A DNA stretch of 32,582 nucleotides from a virus: positions 1 through 32,582 of IMG/VR virus record IMGVR_UViG_3300044568_005513; one strand, given 5' to 3'. This document shows, one piece after another, positions 644-23,174 of the stretch. The number at the start of each line of letters is the position of its first letter. Position 1 is the first letter of the stretch. The notes beneath the pieces are model-generated. The model saw only the letters and a program-made list of their open reading frames with translations, was not told the origin of the DNA and did not search any database. The position numbers and the translations under genes were made by a program.

Positions 644-2451
644 ATAACCATTATTTTGCTGGATAGTTTGTTGCTATCAATTAAGAAAGGATACTTGAAA
701 GAAGGTAAAGCTATGTTTTGTGATGTGATGGACACATCCTCAACACTGTACAATGGATTCCATAGCACAAAGCTCACACCAGGTGTTTCAATATTCTTGT
801 CAATGCGCTTTGTAAAGATTTTTTCCACACCAGCAATGGCTAATAAATCTTTGGTGAGTGCAAAAAAGTCTAATGTCATTCCCAATTTCATTTTGTTGAT
901 GTCAAAGAAATTGAGCAGTGCATCAAGAGCATTGGCTTTGATTTGACTTGATGTGATCTTGCTGTTTTGTGCGCGCTGTATCACAAGCACGCTCTTTTCT
1001 CTCAAGTCAACACTGGCAGGCTCATCAAAAGCTGCAACGGCAACATCTACAGCAATGTAAACTGGATCACTTGGCACTAATTCTGTGCTTTGCATTTGCA
1101 AGCTCTGCATTTGATTGACAATCAACTGCTTGAGATTTGTTGAAAGTGTTTGAGGTATGCTGTTTTGCACCACAAAATTGCGAGGCACAACAAACATATA
1201 CACATTGTTAAAATCACATGCATCTGCAAAAGAAACTTGATTCAACAGCACTCTGGTATCATCATTGGGCTGATTCAATCCAAGATCATAAAAGTATTTC
1301 ATGTATGCATTGATGTAGTCTGAATTGCTGATGGTCTTAACATCACGAATTAAATTTGCAAAGTTGCGTTTTGCAAAGGCATCAAAGTCACCTGTTGTAA
1401 CTGCACGATTTTGAGCAGAAAAAATGCGCGGAGCATTTTCTCTTATTTCTTGCACTGTTTCTAGTGATTTGGGGTCAGTTGATTTGTTGGTGTTGGTGAT
1501 GAAAACAGCATTGAGCTGATCTTGCGTAGCAATGGGATCAGTTGCTTCATAAATATTGGAAGAAATTTCTCTAAATCGAGGTGTAGTAAATCTTACCAAG
1601 GCTGCATCATTGATGGCTTGTGCAGCAATGACACCTTGTGAGCCATTGCTTTGCAAATAATACACTGCAACAAGATCATTAGCATTGAGCTTTTTGCCAT
1701 TGATATCATCACCAAACTTGAGCTCATATCTTCCTGCATCATTCAAACGCTTTTCAAAAGACTTGGGATTGGTTTGCTCATTAAAAAGAGATTCAACCAA
1801 ATTCCACTCACTCCACAATTGTGTTGTTGCATCTTTGACAAACACAAAAATATTGCTGTAATCTACAAACGAATCAGCATTTGTTACAATGCTTTCAATG
1901 GCCATTGTAATGATTTCAAATGGAGCACCTGCTGCTGTTTGTGTTGGGTATTCACGAAATTGTCCTTGATACAACAAATTTTGACTGTCAATTGATTGCA
2001 AATCTTCTGCACCATTGGTTGTTTTTTCAAAGTAAATGTCATTTGATACAGAATAAAATACTCCATTGGCTGTAACAAAAGAAAATCTTGGAATTATGTA
2101 GTTGCCAGCTGCCAAACCAGCACCAGCAGCAGCATCAAAGGATGCAATTGAAGTTTGTGAACCAAGAGGATTGTATCCAATGAGGTTAACAAGTTTATTC
2201 ATGTTTTCAAGCAAAGCAGATTGTGAAAAATAAGATTCTGCAGCCTGATTGTTCAAATAAAACAATGAAACGTGGTAGGAATACGCAATGATGTCAATGA
2301 TTGCAGAAAGATTGCTGCCTTCAAATGCTTGATCAGTAAACACATTGGATGTTTTGAGTCTTTGAATTATGAGACTCTTGAGACTAGTTGCATCAAATGC
2401 AGCATATGCATCTTTTGGTAAGTTGAACTCTGTAAAATTTTGTGCAGACAT
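640..2451 (-). CDS. gp6: Baseplate wedge protein gp6-like
   Basis: A protein of 603 residues, close to T4 gp6 (about 660). The N-terminus (about 10-100) has the family signature: AYAAFDATSLKSLIIQRL, then GSNLSAIIDIIAYSYHVSLF, then ENMNKLVNLIGYNPLGSQTS. T4 gp6 dimers form the inner ring of the baseplate and link the wedges around the hub, and the family is related to gpJ-type baseplate proteins. The ATG lies two bases after the gp25 stop (TAATTATG) with no late box of its own, so it is expected to be co-transcribed and translationally coupled with gp25. Its stop overlaps the start of the PKD-protein gene. The adjacent gp25-gp6 order matches many contractile-tail systems. Identification is firm. 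Confidence 0.93.
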   Translation of the reverse strand: MSAQNFTEFNLPKDAYAAFDATSLKSLIIQRLKTSNVFTDQAFEGSNLSAIIDIIAYSYHVSLFYLNNQAAESYFSQSALLENMNKLVNLIGYNPLGSQTSIASFDAAAGAGLAAGNYIIPRFSFVTANGVFYSVSNDIYFEKTTNGAEDLQSIDSQNLLYQGQFREYPTQTAAGAPFEIITMAIESIVTNADSFVDYSNIFVFVKDATTQLWSEWNLVESLFNEQTNPKSFEKRLNDAGRYELKFGDDINGKKLNANDLVAVYYLQSNGSQGVIAAQAINDAALVRFTTPRFREISSNIYEATDPIATQDQLNAVFITNTNKSTDPKSLETVQEIRENAPRIFSAQNRAVTTGDFDAFAKRNFANLIRDVKTISNSDYINAYMKYFYDLGLNQPNDDTRVLLNQVSFADACDFNNVYMFVVPRNFVVQNSIPQTLSTNLKQLIVNQMQSLQMQSTELVPSDPVYIAVDVAVAAFDEPASVDLREKSVLVIQRAQNSKITSSQIKANALDALLNFFDINKMKLGMTLDFFALTKDLLAIAGVEKIFTKRIDKNIETPGVSFVLWNPLYSVEDVSITSQNIALPSFKYPFLIDSNKLSSKIMVI

Positions 2452-2453
2452 AA

Positions 2454-2933
2454 TTATGTAAAGGTGGCATAGCCTTGGCTGTTGAGATTAATGCTAAGAT
2501 TTAATTTAGCATCATTTTGCAGAAAAGGTACACCAACAGTCATATTTATCGTATACTGCTGATTATCATAATCAGGTATTACTTGTATAGAAATGATGCT
2601 GACTCTGGGTTCAAACACAGAAATATTGCGCTCTATGGTTGTTCTAATCAAGGATGCAACAGAATCAGATGCTGGCATGAACAAATAATCCCTCAAATCC
2701 ATGCCAAATTCTGGATTTAAAATTTTATCTCCTGGGCTTGTCAAGAATAAATTGACGATGCTGTTGCGAATAGCACCTAAATCATAATCTGCAGCTATGT
2801 CTTGCTGCTGAGCTTGTTTTGCAGCTTCATTGGTTATGAGTTGCTGCAATTTCAAATCTAAATGCAAATCAGAATAGGTGTATCCACTATCTGATTTGTT
2901 TGTTTTTGGAAATACTATGTTTACATTGCCCAC
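2454..2933 (-). CDS. gp25: Baseplate wedge protein gp25-like (GPW/gp25 family)
   Basis: A protein of 159 residues with the gp25/GPW core: GAIRNSIVNLFLTSPGDKIL, then NPEFGMDLRDYLF, then an FEPRV motif near residue 110. In T4, gp25 sits at the sheath-baseplate junction and nucleates sheath assembly by donating its handshake strands. The start is GTG at 2933. There is no in-frame ATG, and an in-frame TGA lies a few codons upstream. The late box TTAAATA (2939-2945) lies exactly five bases before this GTG, which supports the choice. The gene is divergent from the plus-strand gene at 2971, with 37 bases between the two starts. gp6 follows after two bases. Confidence 0.92.
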   Translation of the reverse strand: MGNVNIVFPKTNKSDSGYTYSDLHLDLKLQQLITNEAAKQAQQQDIAADYDLGAIRNSIVNLFLTSPGDKILNPEFGMDLRDYLFMPASDSVASLIRTTIERNISVFEPRVSIISIQVIPDYDNQQYTINMTVGVPFLQNDAKLNLSINLNSQGYATFT

Positions 2934-2938
2934 ATCAT

Positions 2939-2945
2939 TATTTAA
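2939..2945 (-). promoter_or_regulatory. Late promoter box of gp25
   Basis: TTAAATA on the minus strand, five bases (ATGAT) before the GTG start at 2933. In T4 the box occupies -13 to -6, which puts +1 on the G of GTG. It is paired back-to-back with the plus-strand box at 2958. Confidence 0.7.
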
Positions 2946-2957
2946 TCACCTGTTAGC

Positions 2958-2964
2958 ATAAATA
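2958..2964 (+). promoter_or_regulatory. Late promoter box of the 191-residue protein
   Basis: ATAAATA, six bases before the ATG at 2971. It fires away from the gp25 promoter in the same 37-base gap. Confidence 0.72.
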
Positions 2965-2970
2965 ATTGCA

Positions 2971-3546
2971 ATGAAAAGTAAATACCTTAGCTTACTAGAA
3001 AACACTCTTACACGCTACCAAAGAGGTGGGTTTCTTGTGGGAGACTACATCAAATTTGCTGATGATTATAAGTCTAAGCCATGCTACAAAGATTTAGCTG
3101 CACAAATCAAAGATGCAGTTGCAGAAGTTGTAGAGCTGTCCAAAAACATGAACTTGCGTGTCATTTCCATTAAAAATGAATATCCATCCAGTGCACCTGG
3201 CAATGAATTCAACACCAATGGCAATGTTGTGATTGATGTTGGTTTGGATTATGGTGGTGGTCGCTTCTACAATGTTGTTACTGTTCCATGTGATGTGCTT
3301 ACAAGATTAGATTATGGTGTGAATTATGCACCACTTCCACAAGCAATTGTTCGTCCTAATCAAATTACACTCAAACCAGAATTGGTTAAAATTGATGGTG
3401 ACACTGAAACATATCGCCAAACACGCACAGCAGATCAAGATGGCAAAGACAAGGATGTTGAGACTGAGCTTGATGATGAGCATGTCAAGATTCCTGCAAG
3501 CTCAGCAAAAAGCTCAGTTGGTGCATACTTGAAATATCTCAAGTAA
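2971..3546 (+). CDS. Conserved-looking protein of unknown function
   Basis: A soluble 191-residue protein that I do not recognise. The N-terminal half (1-75) looks helical and includes RYQRGGFLVGDYIKFADDY. A middle segment rich in Gly and Val (NVVIDVGLDYGGGRFYNVVTV, split around residue 95) looks like beta structure. The tail from about 140 is polar and charged (many D, E, K) and probably flexible. A late box six bases before the ATG groups it with virion or assembly genes rather than with the early genes beside it. It sits divergently next to gp25 and converges on the clamp-loader gene, with an 8-base overlap of their 3' ends and no terminator. No signal peptide or membrane segment is visible. 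Confidence 0.75.
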   Translation: MKSKYLSLLENTLTRYQRGGFLVGDYIKFADDYKSKPCYKDLAAQIKDAVAEVVELSKNMNLRVISIKNEYPSSAPGNEFNTNGNVVIDVGLDYGGGRFYNVVTVPCDVLTRLDYGVNYAPLPQAIVRPNQITLKPELVKIDGDTETYRQTRTADQDGKDKDVETELDDEHVKIPASSAKSSVGAYLKYLK

Positions 3547-4468
3547 CATTCAAGAGATTCAAGCAGCAGTGAAATGCATTGATTTCTTGATCCATTACAA
3601 AGCTTGATCTATACATGTGTTCAGCAATGATGCAAATCATCATTTGTTTTTTCTGTTCTTCAACTGAAGATGAATACAATGCATTGAGCAGGCTTTTCAT
3701 GAGTGCAGCATAATCATTGCAAAAATCCTCTTCATTGTTGATGAGAAACTGACGAATTAGTTTGCAGTCCTGCTTGCTTATAATCATTTGAAGCAATTCA
3801 TTGCTTGTTTCATCAATGCAATTGGCAAAATAGATGAACTTGCCTGTTGCACACATGCGCTGCAAGTGACCAATGATGCGTCTCACATCTGGATACGTGC
3901 TTTTGATTGCTTGCAACAAGCCCTGCTTGTCATCTTCTGCAATGGTTATGTTTTCTTGCTTGAGAACTTGGGTGCAACGCTTTACAACATCAAGCATTGA
4001 ACTTTCTATTTGAATGCTTTGACAACGGCTCTGCAGCGCAGGAATAATGCGATGCAATTGATTGGCTGTGATGATGAAACGAGTATATCTAGCATACTCC
4101 TCCATGATGTTGCGCAGAGCACGCTGACCAGCTTCTGAAAAGCCATCAGCTTCATCAAGTACAATGATCTTGATGCCGCCATCCAAACTTTTTGTTTGGG
4201 CGAAGTTGGTGATTTTGCTTCGCACTGTATCAATGCCATTTTCATCTGAAGCATTGATGTAGAGAAACTGACACTTGAGCAAATCATTGATGATGACTCG
4301 TGCAAGTGTTGTTTTACCAATGCCTGGACGACCAGCCAGCAGCAAATTGGGAATTTCACCCTTGCTGGTGTATGTCTTGATGAGACTTTTGATACTCTCA
4401 TCAAGACACATTTCATCCAATGTTTTGGGTCTGTATTTTTCGATCCAAAGACCTTGTAAATTGAGCAT
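3539..4468 (-). CDS. gp44: Sliding-clamp loader ATPase, gp44-like
   Basis: A protein of 309 residues, close to T4 gp44 (319). It has an N-terminal EKYRPKTLDEM box, Walker A GRPGIGKTT (46-54), Walker B IIVLDEAD (101-108), a sensor-1 region FIITAN (131-136) and the SRC motif at 147-149. These define an RFC small-subunit/gp44 AAA+ protein. It loads the ring-shaped clamp (gp45 in T4) onto primer-template DNA as a complex with gp62. No gp62 or gp45 gene lies in the window. The ATG directly follows AATAAAT, which sits too close for the late spacing seen elsewhere. The gene follows the 30-residue basic ORF, whose stop lies three bases upstream. It belongs to an early-type island inside late genes and is confidently assigned. 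Confidence 0.94.
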   Translation of the reverse strand: MLNLQGLWIEKYRPKTLDEMCLDESIKSLIKTYTSKGEIPNLLLAGRPGIGKTTLARVIINDLLKCQFLYINASDENGIDTVRSKITNFAQTKSLDGGIKIIVLDEADGFSEAGQRALRNIMEEYARYTRFIITANQLHRIIPALQSRCQSIQIESSMLDVVKRCTQVLKQENITIAEDDKQGLLQAIKSTYPDVRRIIGHLQRMCATGKFIYFANCIDETSNELLQMIISKQDCKLIRQFLINNEEDFCNDYAALMKSLLNALYSSSVEEQKKQMMICIIAEHMYRSSFVMDQEINAFHCCLNLLNVT

Positions 4469-16232: not shown

Positions 16233-16265
16233 AAAAAAAAGCGGGGCTGTTGAGCCCCGCTTTTT
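16233..16265. terminator. Bidirectional intrinsic terminator after the sheath gene
   Basis: A perfect 8-bp GC-rich stem (GCGGGGCT / AGCCCCGC, 4-base loop) is flanked by an A-run on the left and a T-run on the right, so it has a U-tract in both directions. It lies nine bases after the sheath stop and is the strongest terminator in the window, as expected after the most heavily expressed tail gene. Confidence 0.92.
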
Positions 16266-19303: not shown

Positions 19304-19310
19304 TATTTAT
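19304..19310 (-). promoter_or_regulatory. Late promoter box of the tube gene; decides the start
   Basis: ATAAATA (TATAAATA with the preceding T), spacer GCAAC before the ATG at 19298. The TAA stop of the terminase nuclease half (19307-19309) lies inside the box. Confidence 0.8.
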
Positions 19311-20560
19311 AAGAACTCCCAACCTTGTAGTTCCATATCAGCCAAATCATCATCTTTGCTTGTTGTGGAACCAAACGCAATGGGCATCGTTGCTGAATCT
19401 TTGTATTGTTCTGCTGTCATCATTTCAAGCCAGGCTCCTGGTGAATTTATGAGGCGATCTTTTTTTGTAAAATAAGTGAGGCCAAAATCCATGGGTTTGA
19501 GCTTGCTGGGCTTGCCATTATCATCTGTTTCCTCCACCTCAAAGTATTGATTGCATATGCCAAATTGCTTGTCATTGTCTAGAATTATCAATGCCCACAC
19601 CAATGCCATGACACAGTCATCTGTACCATTGCCGCGAGCACTCCATGTGCCGTTGGGCTTGCGTACAAAATCTTTGAGTTCTATGAGTGTATTCATGTCA
19701 TTGAATTTAACACATTTGAGCACATTCACCCAATACCTCATGTTGAGTACACCACGTTGCTTGGTGTTGGTGTGTGCAATTACACCCAAGAATTCTTTTT
19801 TGCGGCCAGCCAATTCAGCACCATAACTCACAATGTTTTCGTAATTGTGGTTGGCTCTCAAGTTTTCCACCACAATTTGACCGCAACTGTTGCGCTCAAC
19901 CAACACAAGTGGTTTGCCCCATTGTGTCAATACTTCATTTAACTTGACAGTAAACTGAGCTGGTGCAATTGCATTGTCTCTGTAAATGGCCACTTGTTCA
20001 ATGTTGGTCAAATCAGTTACATCCAAAATTTGTATCACTGAATAGTTTTGTCCTACACCTTCAGCCACATCAACGCCAGCTATGTATATGCGATCTTCTT
20101 CTGGACTTTTCCAAATCTTGTATGATTCACCATCCAGCATAATTTCTGGATCGCTGCAATATTTTTTGAGTTTTTCAAAAGTTTCAATGTCAATGGATGA
20201 TTCGCCTTTGTGATGAAATACGCAGTTGTGAGAGAGCAGATCATTGGTATAATACATATACTCACCTTCAACATCTATTAGATCATACAAATCTACAAAT
20301 CCAATGTCTATTTTTTCTTGCAGCGTAAAAATCTTGTTGCTACTGCCTAGAACTTTATCACCCACATTTAAGTCAGATGCTTTAATAAACGTCTTTGTAA
20401 CGAAATTTGTGCAGAGTGGGTGATTTTTTGAACACTTTAAATCAGTTCCGTTGAATTTTAAATGAACTGAATCTTTATGGATTTTCTGTATTCCATAAAA
20501 GCTTTTATACCCCAGGGGCGTGAGGACTTTTAAGTTTTGTGTATTTAGTTTAAAGCTCAT
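19307..20560 (-). CDS. terL: Terminase large subunit, C-terminal half: intein C-part plus nuclease domain
   Basis: 417 residues. The first 112 are an intein C-part: block B-like CSKNHP near 43-48, block F around FVDLYDLIDVEGEYMYYTND, and block G LLSHN followed by Cys113 as the +1 residue. The remaining 305 residues are the C-terminal nuclease domain of a T4-type large terminase, with acidic motifs IYIAGVDVAEG, LVLVERNSCG and TDDCVMALVWAL in the RNase H-like arrangement (D, E, D) of gp17. It cuts concatemeric DNA during packaging. The start ATG overlaps the endonuclease stop by 11 bases. It is not functional alone; trans-splicing to the ATPase half is expected. A proper late box is missing (only CAAATA, seven bases upstream), so translation is probably coupled. 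Confidence 0.93.
   Translation of the reverse strand: MSFKLNTQNLKVLTPLGYKSFYGIQKIHKDSVHLKFNGTDLKCSKNHPLCTNFVTKTFIKASDLNVGDKVLGSSNKIFTLQEKIDIGFVDLYDLIDVEGEYMYYTNDLLSHNCVFHHKGESSIDIETFEKLKKYCSDPEIMLDGESYKIWKSPEEDRIYIAGVDVAEGVGQNYSVIQILDVTDLTNIEQVAIYRDNAIAPAQFTVKLNEVLTQWGKPLVLVERNSCGQIVVENLRANHNYENIVSYGAELAGRKKEFLGVIAHTNTKQRGVLNMRYWVNVLKCVKFNDMNTLIELKDFVRKPNGTWSARGNGTDDCVMALVWALIILDNDKQFGICNQYFEVEETDDNGKPSKLKPMDFGLTYFTKKDRLINSPGAWLEMMTAEQYKDSATMPIAFGSTTSKDDDLADMELQGWEFL
20225..20560 (-). other. Intein C-part of the split terminase intein (112 residues)
   Basis: Encodes residues 1-112 of the nuclease-half protein. It ends with Ser-His-Asn, the penultimate His and final Asn needed for Asn cyclisation, and the next codon (20224-20222) is Cys, the +1 nucleophile. 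Because it also contains the block B region (SKNH, with Ser in place of the usual Thr), the split lies much earlier than in normal split inteins. No endonuclease domain is inserted. Confidence 0.9.
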
Positions 20561-21362
20561 GAGTTTCTATTTGGAGTGTATCATCCCAAATTACAATGAA
20601 TTTGCATTTTAAATATTTATGCAATATTTTTCTGCGCTTCTCATCCTTTTCCTTGTAATATTTTTTTCTGTGATGTGGTTCATTAACTTCATATACTGTA
20701 TTTGTTTCACTGCAATAACCATCAGGAAAAAAGTTTAAAACCTTAAAATCTCTTTGAATTGATATGTTATTATCCATTTCAATCTTATCTAAAATATCCT
20801 TTTCATTTTTGCCACGAGTTATGCAGCCTTTTATATTATGCTCTCTGAATTTTCTTTCACCATCAGCACCAAATTTATTGATGAAGTGCGGCTTTGTTGT
20901 GCCTACTAATCTACAACCCATGCAGTATAATTTTGTCCAGTCTTGTGTTTGTGGATCAAAAGTAAATTTAGAACCACAAATGCAAAGCATATCCTCATCA
21001 ACAACAAAATTATTTATTGCAATATCCATTCTACATACAAATGGTATGCTGCGGGAGTAAAAATTGCTAAAATCATTAGTATAATGTATTAATGATTTAT
21101 ATACTTGTAAGTTATCTCGTTTAAGTTTGCGATTACCGGCACGACCTCTGTAACTATCGTAATTGTTGGTGATAAAATTGGTTACCTCATGCTTTTCAAC
21201 CAAAGAGCAATTGTTAATTTTTTGCTTTTCTTTTTCATAAAATTCAACCGCGGTATTTTTATGCACAGCAGATATACCGCACTCTCCATACTTTTGCAGT
21301 ATTGTATTTTTTCGTTTTTTTAATGATTTAGCAAGTTTTATAGGATTTTGCATATAGTGCAT
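20550..21362 (-). CDS. Free-standing homing endonuclease, Vsr-like (EDxHD-type), between the terminase halves
   Basis: A protein of 270 residues from the ATG at 21362. The N-terminus (KLAKSLKKRKNTILQKYGEC) resembles DNA-binding segments of phage homing enzymes. C127, C129, C147 and C150 (CICG and CMGC) form a likely zinc ribbon. The C-terminal catalytic region has FPDGY (Asp214), YEVNEPHH (Glu225, Glu228, His230/231) and KEKDEKRR (Asp240), the layout of the Vsr-like EDxHD family described in fractured split-intein genes. It would cut intein-free terminase alleles and promote copying of the cassette. An in-frame ATG at 21434 lies inside the ATPase-half gene. I prefer 21362 because a late box lies exactly five bases before it. 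The stop overlaps the next gene's ATG. Confidence 0.85.
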   Translation of the reverse strand: MHYMQNPIKLAKSLKKRKNTILQKYGECGISAVHKNTAVEFYEKEKQKINNCSLVEKHEVTNFITNNYDSYRGRAGNRKLKRDNLQVYKSLIHYTNDFSNFYSRSIPFVCRMDIAINNFVVDEDMLCICGSKFTFDPQTQDWTKLYCMGCRLVGTTKPHFINKFGADGERKFREHNIKGCITRGKNEKDILDKIEMDNNISIQRDFKVLNFFPDGYCSETNTVYEVNEPHHRKKYYKEKDEKRRKILHKYLKCKFIVIWDDTLQIETHEL

Positions 21363-21367
21363 ATGAG

Positions 21368-21374
21368 TATTTAT
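21368..21374 (-). promoter_or_regulatory. Late promoter box of the homing endonuclease gene
   Basis: ATAAATA with spacer CTCAT before the ATG at 21362. Its first two bases are the end of the 3' arm of the hairpin at 21373-21411, so transcripts from here would lack the hairpin. Confidence 0.72.
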
Positions 21375-21411
21375 CTTTACAAGAGTATTATTTACATACT
21401 CTTGTAAAGAT
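21373..21411. repeat. Perfect 15-bp inverted repeat at the break in the terminase gene
   Basis: Arms ATCTTTACAAGAGTA (21373-21387) and TACTCTTGTAAAGAT (21397-21411) with a 9-base loop. The right arm encodes the last codons of the intein N-part, and the TAA stop (21392-21394) is in the loop. The left arm touches the endonuclease late promoter. There is no U-run after it on either strand, so it is not a standard terminator. Read-through RNA from the terminase gene would carry the hairpin just upstream of the endonuclease start. Confidence 0.9.
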
Positions 21412-22291
21412 CCTCCATATTTATTTGCATGCAACTGCTTCTATCTTTTTGTATATTAAGCAGAGTGTCGCCGTGACATGATTCATATTCTTGCAAAAAG
21501 GCCTCAATGCTGCCAATTTGTTTGATTTGACTTTGTTTCCACTTTTCATCTCGGCCTGGCACAGCATCCCATTTGATGGTCATGGTGCTAAAGTCATTTT
21601 GGCTTTTTATTGCTCCATCATACAGCTGATAGAACAAATTGTCTGTTCCATTGGGAGTAGATGCAATCAATACTTTGGATGTTTTGGAGCGAGAAATTGT
21701 GGGCCACACAGAACGCCAAAAATCTTCCATGATGGATGGAGGATCAATGAAAGCCAACTCATCCAGCAGCAAAACGTTGAGGGATTGACCACGAGCAGCA
21801 GATCCGGTGGTGGTGGAAATGCCAACACGAGATCCATTGTCTAAGGTCATGCTGGTTTTACCATATTCTTGCACACCAGGCTTGAGCCAGTTGGGCAACT
21901 GCTCATATGCAAGTCGCACTCTTCTGAATATTTCAATGGCTGTGCTTTCTTTGTTTGCAACAATGAGAATATTTTGATCTTGATTGAAGCATGCTACCCA
22001 CAGTGCATATATGCAAAGCAATGTTGTTTTGCCCAACTGTCTAGATGTCAGCAGAATATTGTAGCGATTGTCTCGCAGCATTCTTAGTGCATCTTTTTGG
22101 TATTTGTACAACTCAATTATGACACGCCCCTTGTCTGGATCAATGATGTAAAAATAATTTTCAGCAAAAAACAATAAATTCTGTGCGCACTTTTTTAAAT
22201 CACGCACCATTTGCGGTGTATATTCATATTCTGCTGTGCTGGTGGGCAGATTTGGGTTGTTGAGATAAAACTCTCTACTTTTTGATGGCAT
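21392..22291 (-). CDS. terL: Terminase large subunit, N-terminal half: ATPase domain plus short intein N-part
   Basis: 299 residues. The first 271 are the packaging-motor ATPase of a T4-type large terminase: Walker A SRQLGKTT (83-90), Walker B NVLLLDELA (172-180) and coupling motif STPNG (211-215). Instead of continuing into the nuclease domain, the protein switches after QEYES (267-271) to Cys272-HGDTLL, an intein block A, and stops 28 residues later after EDLYKSM. The junction aligns with the FRQEH region of gp17, between its ATPase and nuclease domains. Splicing to the second half would give 271+305=576 residues (T4 gp17 has 610). A GTAAATA box lies seven bases before the ATG. The gene is divergent from the acidic protein at 22327. 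Confidence 0.94.
   Translation of the reverse strand: MPSKSREFYLNNPNLPTSTAEYEYTPQMVRDLKKCAQNLLFFAENYFYIIDPDKGRVIIELYKYQKDALRMLRDNRYNILLTSRQLGKTTLLCIYALWVACFNQDQNILIVANKESTAIEIFRRVRLAYEQLPNWLKPGVQEYGKTSMTLDNGSRVGISTTTGSAARGQSLNVLLLDELAFIDPPSIMEDFWRSVWPTISRSKTSKVLIASTPNGTDNLFYQLYDGAIKSQNDFSTMTIKWDAVPGRDEKWKQSQIKQIGSIEAFLQEYESCHGDTLLNIQKDRSSCMQINMEDLYKSM
21395..21478 (-). other. Intein N-part of the split terminase intein (28 residues)
   Basis: Encodes Cys272 to Met299 of the ATPase-half protein. CHGDTLL matches intein block A (Cys1, then Asp-Thr). The end, INMEDLYKSM, is close to the short N-part of the AceL-TerL intein as I recall it, which also ends around EDLYK. Normal split inteins have an N-part of about 90-120 residues, so this is an atypical, very early split. 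Confidence 0.88.
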
Positions 22292-23140: not shown

Positions 23141-23174
23141 AAAAAAGCGGAGATTTATCTCCGCTTTTTTTTTT
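23141..23174. terminator. Bidirectional intrinsic terminator between convergent genes
   Basis: An 8-bp stem (GCGGAGAT / ATCTCCGC, minimal 2-base loop as written) has an A-run on the left and a run of ten T on the right. It serves both the plus-strand acidic-protein gene (ends 23121) and the minus-strand gene ending at 23183. Confidence 0.92.

What the first reader, a model, noticed from the sequence alone, without database searches (positions are those of the whole stretch)
21363..21411. Hairpin with the terminase stop codon in its loop, abutting the endonuclease late promoter
A perfect 15-bp inverted repeat spans the break point. One arm is intein coding sequence, the loop holds the stop, and the other arm runs into ATAAATA. 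Read-through RNA would fold just before the endonuclease start, while RNA begun at the late promoter would lack the hairpin. T4 controls I-TevI and some other genes in a similar way, limiting endonuclease expression to late infection. The exact duplication of part of the intein coding sequence also hints at how the gene was broken.
Basis: partly seen in the sequence, partly recalled or inferred. Interest (0 to 1): 0.75.

Follow-up and report, generated by a model that had tools for sequence, protein, structure and literature searches.

The report
Hairpin upstream of leaderless endonuclease promoter
A T4-like phage whose DNA-packaging motor gene is split by a mobile 'split intein' carries a perfect 16-bp hairpin just in front of the mobile element's own late promoter; the promoter is well supported and would make an mRNA that starts exactly at the start codon, but the hairpin is not kept in the only close relative, so its regulatory role is plausible but unproven.

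Summary
The hairpin is real and non-random: a perfect 16-bp (not 15) inverted repeat, 21373-21388 / 21396-21411, 7-nt loop containing the TAA of TerL-N/IntN. The locus is a three-gene split intein (TerL-N+IntN, nuclease-like ORF, IntC+TerL-C) of the atypical AceL/GOS/Cat-TerL class, with Ser1/Cys+1, inserted exactly (1257 nt) into a terL whose empty allele exists in a 96%-identical relative. The late promoter is well supported: in this lineage late genes have an (N)ATAAATA box mostly 5 nt before the start codon and no Shine-Dalgarno, so late mRNAs should be leaderless; GATAAATA-CTCAT-ATG before the endonuclease fits. But the I-TevI scheme fails in its key parts: no ribosome-binding site to sequester, AUG outside the stem, breaking the stem in silico does not free the AUG, terL is itself late, the essential TerL-C half lies downstream on the same RNA, and relative L001 (65% aa; same break and spacer) lacks the hairpin. 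The 'how the gene broke' idea is not supported. Best guess: an insulator between two translation units in read-through RNA; a neutral palindrome is nearly as likely.

The parts
21396..21411 (-). 5' arm of the hairpin (minus strand), codes for intein tail D-L-Y-K-S-M
21389..21395 (-). 7-nt loop GTAAATA with the TAA stop of TerL-N/IntN (21392-21394)
21373..21388 (-). 3' arm of the hairpin; its inner 9 nt ATACTCTTG are identical in relative L001, the base pairing is not
21368..21375 (-). T4-type late promoter box GATAAATA; predicted start of RNA at 21362
   Evidence: 5-nt spacing to ATG matches the lineage-wide module; box at -13 to -6 per PMC2988020
20550..21362 (-). nuclease-like ORF, 270 aa, ATG at 21362-21360, DUF559/Vsr-like C-terminal motif
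   Evidence: (DUF559 E 0.024, below cut-off)
21392..22291 (-). TerL N-terminal ATPase half plus 29-aa N-intein (Ser271 at 21481 to Met299)
   Evidence: IntN tail matches CatN, 6dsl_A
20225..20560 (-). C-intein, 112 aa; its ATG overlaps the end of the nuclease ORF
   Evidence: 6dsl_B CatC, E 1.5e-19
19307..20224 (-). TerL C-terminal nuclease half (C-extein begins with Cys+1)
20225..21481 (-). whole inserted cassette, 1257 nt, absent at the exact site in L003
21412..21416 (-). GGAGG directly 5' of the hairpin, inside codons for the conserved intein motif M-E-D
21418..21425 (-). second late-like box AATAAATA inside IntN; if active, RNA would begin at the base of the hairpin; not present in L001

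Best explanation
The cassette is a mobile, naturally split intein of the atypical TerL class with a nuclease-like gene between its halves. The nuclease (and, through overlapping genes, IntC+TerL-C) is transcribed from the cassette's own T4-type late promoter, GATAAATA, placed 5 nt before the ATG, so that the late mRNA begins at the AUG (leaderless), as for the phage's other late genes. The hairpin lies just upstream of that start, so it exists only in RNA that reads through from terL-N. There it most likely acts as an insulator: it re-forms after the terminating ribosome leaves the loop and stands between the TerL-N stop and the nuclease AUG 29 nt downstream, hindering reinitiation, so that nuclease and TerL-C come mainly from the leaderless RNA. 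Shown: repeat, gene order, box and its lineage-wide 5-nt spacing, absence of Shine-Dalgarno, empty site. Inferred: transcription start, leaderless translation, the hairpin's effect.
For: Hairpin real and unique among 36 box-preceded genes. ATAAATA-N5-ATG: 19 exact instances in a 116-kb sister contig against 0 for the reversed control; box-to-start spacing 5 in 12 of 18 (window) and 25 of 39 (sister) box genes; boxes precede sheath, tube, endolysin and fibre genes, but not at this spacing the clamp loader, dUTPase or exonuclease genes. Shine-Dalgarno matches are no more frequent than at random ATGs. SG1 (T-even), by contrast, has leaders with Shine-Dalgarno sequences after its boxes. L001 keeps the box and nearly the spacer length. 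A stable, non-sequestering hairpin just upstream of a homing endonuclease start is known from seg43 of Aeromonas phage 25 (PMC2988022).
Against: The hairpin is not conserved in the only relative with this nuclease: 11 of 16 pairs remain in register and the region does not fold (z -0.7). No RNA data exist. An insulator would also cut TerL-C output from read-through RNA. Other fractured terL loci manage with overlapping genes and no hairpin.
Confidence: 0.38

Rival explanations
1. Neutral by-product: the spacer was a quasi-palindrome and template switching made it perfect, or drift did; the hairpin has no function.
For: L001 aligns almost without gaps through both arms and the spacer, with a partial palindrome (11 of 16 pairs) and no stable fold; only one of 36 late promoters has such a stem.
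Against: Perfect 16 bp is far beyond chance and sits exactly between stop and promoter; homing endonuclease genes in T4-like phages often carry such hairpins (PMC2988022).
Confidence: 0.27
2. DNA operator: the arms mimic the nuclease's homing site and the nuclease represses its own late promoter, as I-TevI does.
For: Arm TTTACAAGAGTATG against homing flank TTTGCAAGAATATG, 12 of 14; the spacer motif ATACTCTTG is identical in window and L001 and matches the shared target core CAAGAATAT in 8 of 9; the 3' arm overlaps the box; I-TevI autorepression by a homing-site-like operator is known (PMC2988022).
Against: Statistically weak: 0.08 for the window and 0.13 to 0.61 for L001 unrestricted, 0.012 for the restricted post-hoc test; no match when L004 is used as target.
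Confidence: 0.15
3. I-TevI-type translational repression: the stem hides the start of the nuclease in read-through RNA.
For: Late promoter lies so that late RNA lacks the stem; in the read-through fold the AU of the AUG is mostly paired through an outer helix.
Against: No Shine-Dalgarno; AUG outside the stem; scrambling the 3' arm leaves AUG accessibility unchanged; promoter is 3' of the stem and not in its 5' arm; no early or middle read-through expected.
Confidence: 0.1
4. Split ribosome-binding site as in T4 genes 25 and 38: the hairpin brings GGAGG (21416-21412) to 10 nt from the AUG and promotes translation of read-through RNA.
For: GGAGG abuts the stem and 10 nt remain to the AUG; at the same intein codons other phages have the Shine-Dalgarno of the next gene: L008, L140, L144, L137.
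Against: This phage shows no Shine-Dalgarno use; GGAGG follows from the conserved protein motif MEDLY also present in CatN; L001 has GAAGA there and no stem.
Confidence: 0.1

Closest known systems
seg43 hairpin of Aeromonas phage 25 (PMC2988022)
   Same: very stable hairpin just upstream of a homing endonuclease start, not sequestering the initiation site; function untested
   Different: there a ribosome-binding site follows the stem; here there is none and a late promoter box overlaps the stem base
T4 I-TevI, I-TevII, I-TevIII, segB and Aeh1 mobE hairpin control
   Same: endonuclease gene inside another gene's transcript, hairpin only in read-through RNA, late promoter beside it
   Different: no sequestered Shine-Dalgarno, promoter is 3' of the stem, late RNA predicted leaderless, host gene itself late, essential gene half downstream
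GOS-TerL / AceL-TerL / Cat-TerL atypical split inteins
   Same: terminase large subunit, very short IntN (29 aa), IntC 112 aa matching CatC at E 1.5e-19, Ser1/Cys+1 as in GOS-TerL
   Different: nuclease gene of an unnamed DUF559/Vsr-like kind between the halves with its own leaderless late promoter; whether GOS-TerL or AceL-TerL loci have the same was not checked here
Fractured terL of T-even phages such as SG1 and Yersinia phiR1-RT
   Same: three genes: TerL-N+IntN, endonuclease, IntC+TerL-C
   Different: other insertion site, IntN stop and endonuclease start overlap by 14 nt, no hairpin, nuclease not detectably related
T4 gene 25 / gene 38 split ribosome-binding sites
   Same: Shine-Dalgarno-like GGAGG directly 5' of a stem, AUG 10 nt after it
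   Different: phage does not use Shine-Dalgarno elsewhere; relative lacks both

Membership tests
I-TevI-type hairpin control | late promoter placed so that late RNA lacks the hairpin | tested here: met
   box 21375-21368, predicted start 21362, 3' of the stem; start not mapped
I-TevI-type hairpin control | Shine-Dalgarno and/or AUG inside the stem in read-through RNA | tested here: not met
   no Shine-Dalgarno between stem and AUG; AUG 10 nt outside stem; accessibility unchanged when arm is scrambled
I-TevI-type hairpin control | late RNA exposes a functional ribosome-binding site | tested here: not met
   predicted RNA begins at AUG; phage lacks Shine-Dalgarno
I-TevI-type hairpin control | hairpin kept in related endonuclease loci | tested here: not met
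   L001, z -0.7; only one relative available
T4-type late promoter | (T)ATAAATA box at -13 to -6, upstream of late genes | tested here: met
   PMC2988020; by sequence only, no RNA ends
Atypical TerL split intein (AceL/GOS/Cat) | short IntN and long homologous IntC in terL | tested here: met
   29 and 112 aa; CatC E 1.5e-19, CatN E 0.026
Atypical TerL split intein (AceL/GOS/Cat) | Ser1/Cys+1 nucleophiles as in GOS-TerL | tested here: met
   empty allele L003 LQEYE^CVFHHK sets residue 1 = Ser271
Atypical TerL split intein (AceL/GOS/Cat) | trans-splicing activity | not testable with these tools
   needs expression of both halves
Split ribosome-binding site (T4 gene 25/38) | Shine-Dalgarno 5' of stem, AUG at working distance 3' of it | tested here: met
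   GGAGG 21416-21412, 10 nt after stem to AUG
Split ribosome-binding site (T4 gene 25/38) | Shine-Dalgarno used by this phage | tested here: not met
   no enrichment over random ATGs in window or sister contig
Homing-site-mimic operator | significant similarity of promoter-proximal DNA to the homing site | tested here: inconclusive
Intrinsic terminator | G+C-rich stem followed by U run | tested here: not met
   AU-rich stem followed by AAATACTC; terminator-like hairpins are at 16236 and 23141
DUF559/Vsr-like nuclease | profile match above curated cut-off | tested here: not met
   14.9 bits, cut-off 20.6; structure prediction failed, pLDDT 33

The most novel reading that the evidence does not exclude
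A lineage of T4-like phages has fused its late promoter to the start codon (box, 5 nt, ATG), so late mRNAs are leaderless and need no Shine-Dalgarno; a mobile split-intein cassette adapted to this by carrying the same module plus a hairpin that insulates it from read-through translation, so homing-nuclease and half-terminase output depends on the leaderless RNA only.
Probability: 0.25. Interest if true: 0.65.

Novelty: new variant of a known kind. Interest (0 to 1): 0.42.

Why it matters
If the leaderless reading holds, a whole late regulon of a T4-like phage is started on mRNAs without leaders, unlike T4, and the familiar hairpin control of phage homing endonucleases would have to work by something other than hiding a ribosome-binding site. 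It also adds natural split inteins with the Ser1/Cys+1 pair, of which GOS-TerL was the first example, here with a sequenced empty allele.

Tried and rejected
Intrinsic terminator: no U run. Programmed -1 frameshift joining IntN to the nuclease: the nuclease frame is open through the hairpin, but there is no slippery heptamer and the frame relation differs in L001. Hairpin as a general feature of late promoters: no, 1 of 36. Rfam: nothing. Same hairpin elsewhere: no exact copy in IMG/VR. More relatives of the nuclease: only L001 in IMG/VR, none in the genome collection; phages gave only weak DUF559 matches. Structure prediction of the nuclease failed. Homology to the T-even fractured-terL endonuclease not found.

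Full report
Observation. The window holds, on the minus strand, a terminase large subunit split in two with a third gene between the halves. TerL-N runs 22291-21392 and ends in an intein tail; a 270-aa ORF runs from ATG 21362 to 20550; IntC plus TerL-C run 20560-19307, the ATG overlapping the end of the middle ORF. The RNA folds 5 standard deviations below shuffles.

The intein. IntC matches the solved consensus atypical intein CatC (6dsl) at E 1.5e-19 and IntN matches CatN at E 0.026 with the shared motif MEDLY. A relative that is 96% identical in terL, L003, has no insert: its protein reads LQEYE-CVFHHK where the window has LQEYE-[intein]-CVFHHK. The insert is therefore 21481-20225, 1257 nt, residue 1 of the intein is serine and residue +1 cysteine. 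This is the combination described for GOS-TerL (PMC11766414); L001 shares it.

The promoter. In the window 18 of 33 called genes have an (N)TAAATA box 5 to 7 nt before the start codon, 12 of them at exactly 5. In the 116-kb sister contig G003 the exact word ATAAATA-N5-ATG occurs 19 times, its reversed control never. The T4 late box lies at -13 to -6 (PMC2988020, with the 8-bp box starting at -13), so RNA should begin at the A of the ATG. Shine-Dalgarno matches before starts are no more common than before random ATGs. Genes with the box include sheath, tube, endolysin and fibre genes; clamp loader, dUTPase and exonuclease lack it at that spacing. In eight other phages with such inteins the word is essentially absent, and in SG1 (T-even) late boxes are followed by leaders, many with Shine-Dalgarno sequences. 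The endonuclease start, GATAAATA-CTCAT-ATG, fits the module.

The hairpin's role. The T4 mechanism cited needs a stem that hides a Shine-Dalgarno or AUG, and a late RNA that frees it (PMC3014915, PMC2988022). Here no Shine-Dalgarno lies between stem and AUG, the AUG is outside the stem, and scrambling the 3' arm changes its predicted accessibility from 0.33 to 0.35 only. A bidirectional terminator-like hairpin at 23141-23170 and a gene on the other strand separate terL from genes further up, and terL has its own late-like box (TGTAAATA), so early or middle read-through is not expected. The start of IntC+TerL-C has no box and overlaps the endonuclease, so any block on the endonuclease is likely to affect half of an essential protein too.

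Comparison. L001, the only other locus found with this nuclease (65% identity), has the same break, a spacer that aligns almost without gaps, the ATACTCTTG of the 3' arm and a perfect TATAAATA, but only 11 of the 16 pairs and no stable fold. Other phages, at the same or other terL sites, use overlapping genes; at the intein codons equivalent to MED several carry the Shine-Dalgarno of the next gene. That makes a split ribosome-binding site (T4 genes 25 and 38, PMC3014915) a natural thought, since GGAGG sits against the stem and 10 nt remain to the AUG, but this phage shows no use of Shine-Dalgarno sequences. The closest published case is the seg43 hairpin of Aeromonas phage 25, which also does not cover the initiation site and is untested (PMC2988022).

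An operator reading was tested because I-TevI represses itself at a homing-site-like sequence. The arm resembles the homing flank (12 of 14) and the conserved ATACTCTTG resembles the target core shared by both phages (8 of 9), but chance levels are 0.08 (window) and 0.13 to 0.61 (L001) unrestricted, 0.012 in the restricted post-hoc form. It stays open.

Verdict. Observation confirmed; promoter confirmed by sequence and sharpened; the I-TevI analogy is not met in its defining step; the origin-of-break idea is not supported. The insulator model is my best guess at 0.38; a neutral palindrome is next at 0.27. The nuclease call itself is moderate: a sub-threshold DUF559 match and a Vsr-like motif by eye, with no usable model.

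Noticed in passing
window, e.g. 18682, 19298, 15737, 14846, 10080, 22327, 29902; sister contig L148-L153: Late promoter box and start codon are fused at a fixed distance (mostly 5 nt) genome-wide, without Shine-Dalgarno, implying leaderless late mRNAs in this T4-like lineage.
   Followed up: partly
window 4373-4408; L150 (G003 49596-49631): A 13-bp perfect hairpin with 10-nt loop inside the clamp-loader gene, arms identical in the sister phage.
   Followed up: no
L004 around 3430-4460, L002 around 2280-3308: These relatives carry a different insert, intein-like, at the Walker A region of terL, while L003 has neither insert.
   Followed up: partly
L008 1401-5113: Jumbo-phage contig in which the endonuclease is fused to IntC+TerL-C and starts inside the IntN codons; a second, truncated TerL-N-like ORF lies directly upstream.
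   Followed up: no
L140 2790-2810, L144 2985-3000, L137 1300-1312, L008 3000-3013: In fractured terL genes the conserved E-E-L / K-E-L / G-E-L codons of the N-intein double as a Shine-Dalgarno-like sequence of the overlapping next gene.
   Followed up: partly
window 16236-16265 and 23141-23170: Two strong, apparently bidirectional intrinsic terminators with A-run and T-run flanks.
   Followed up: no
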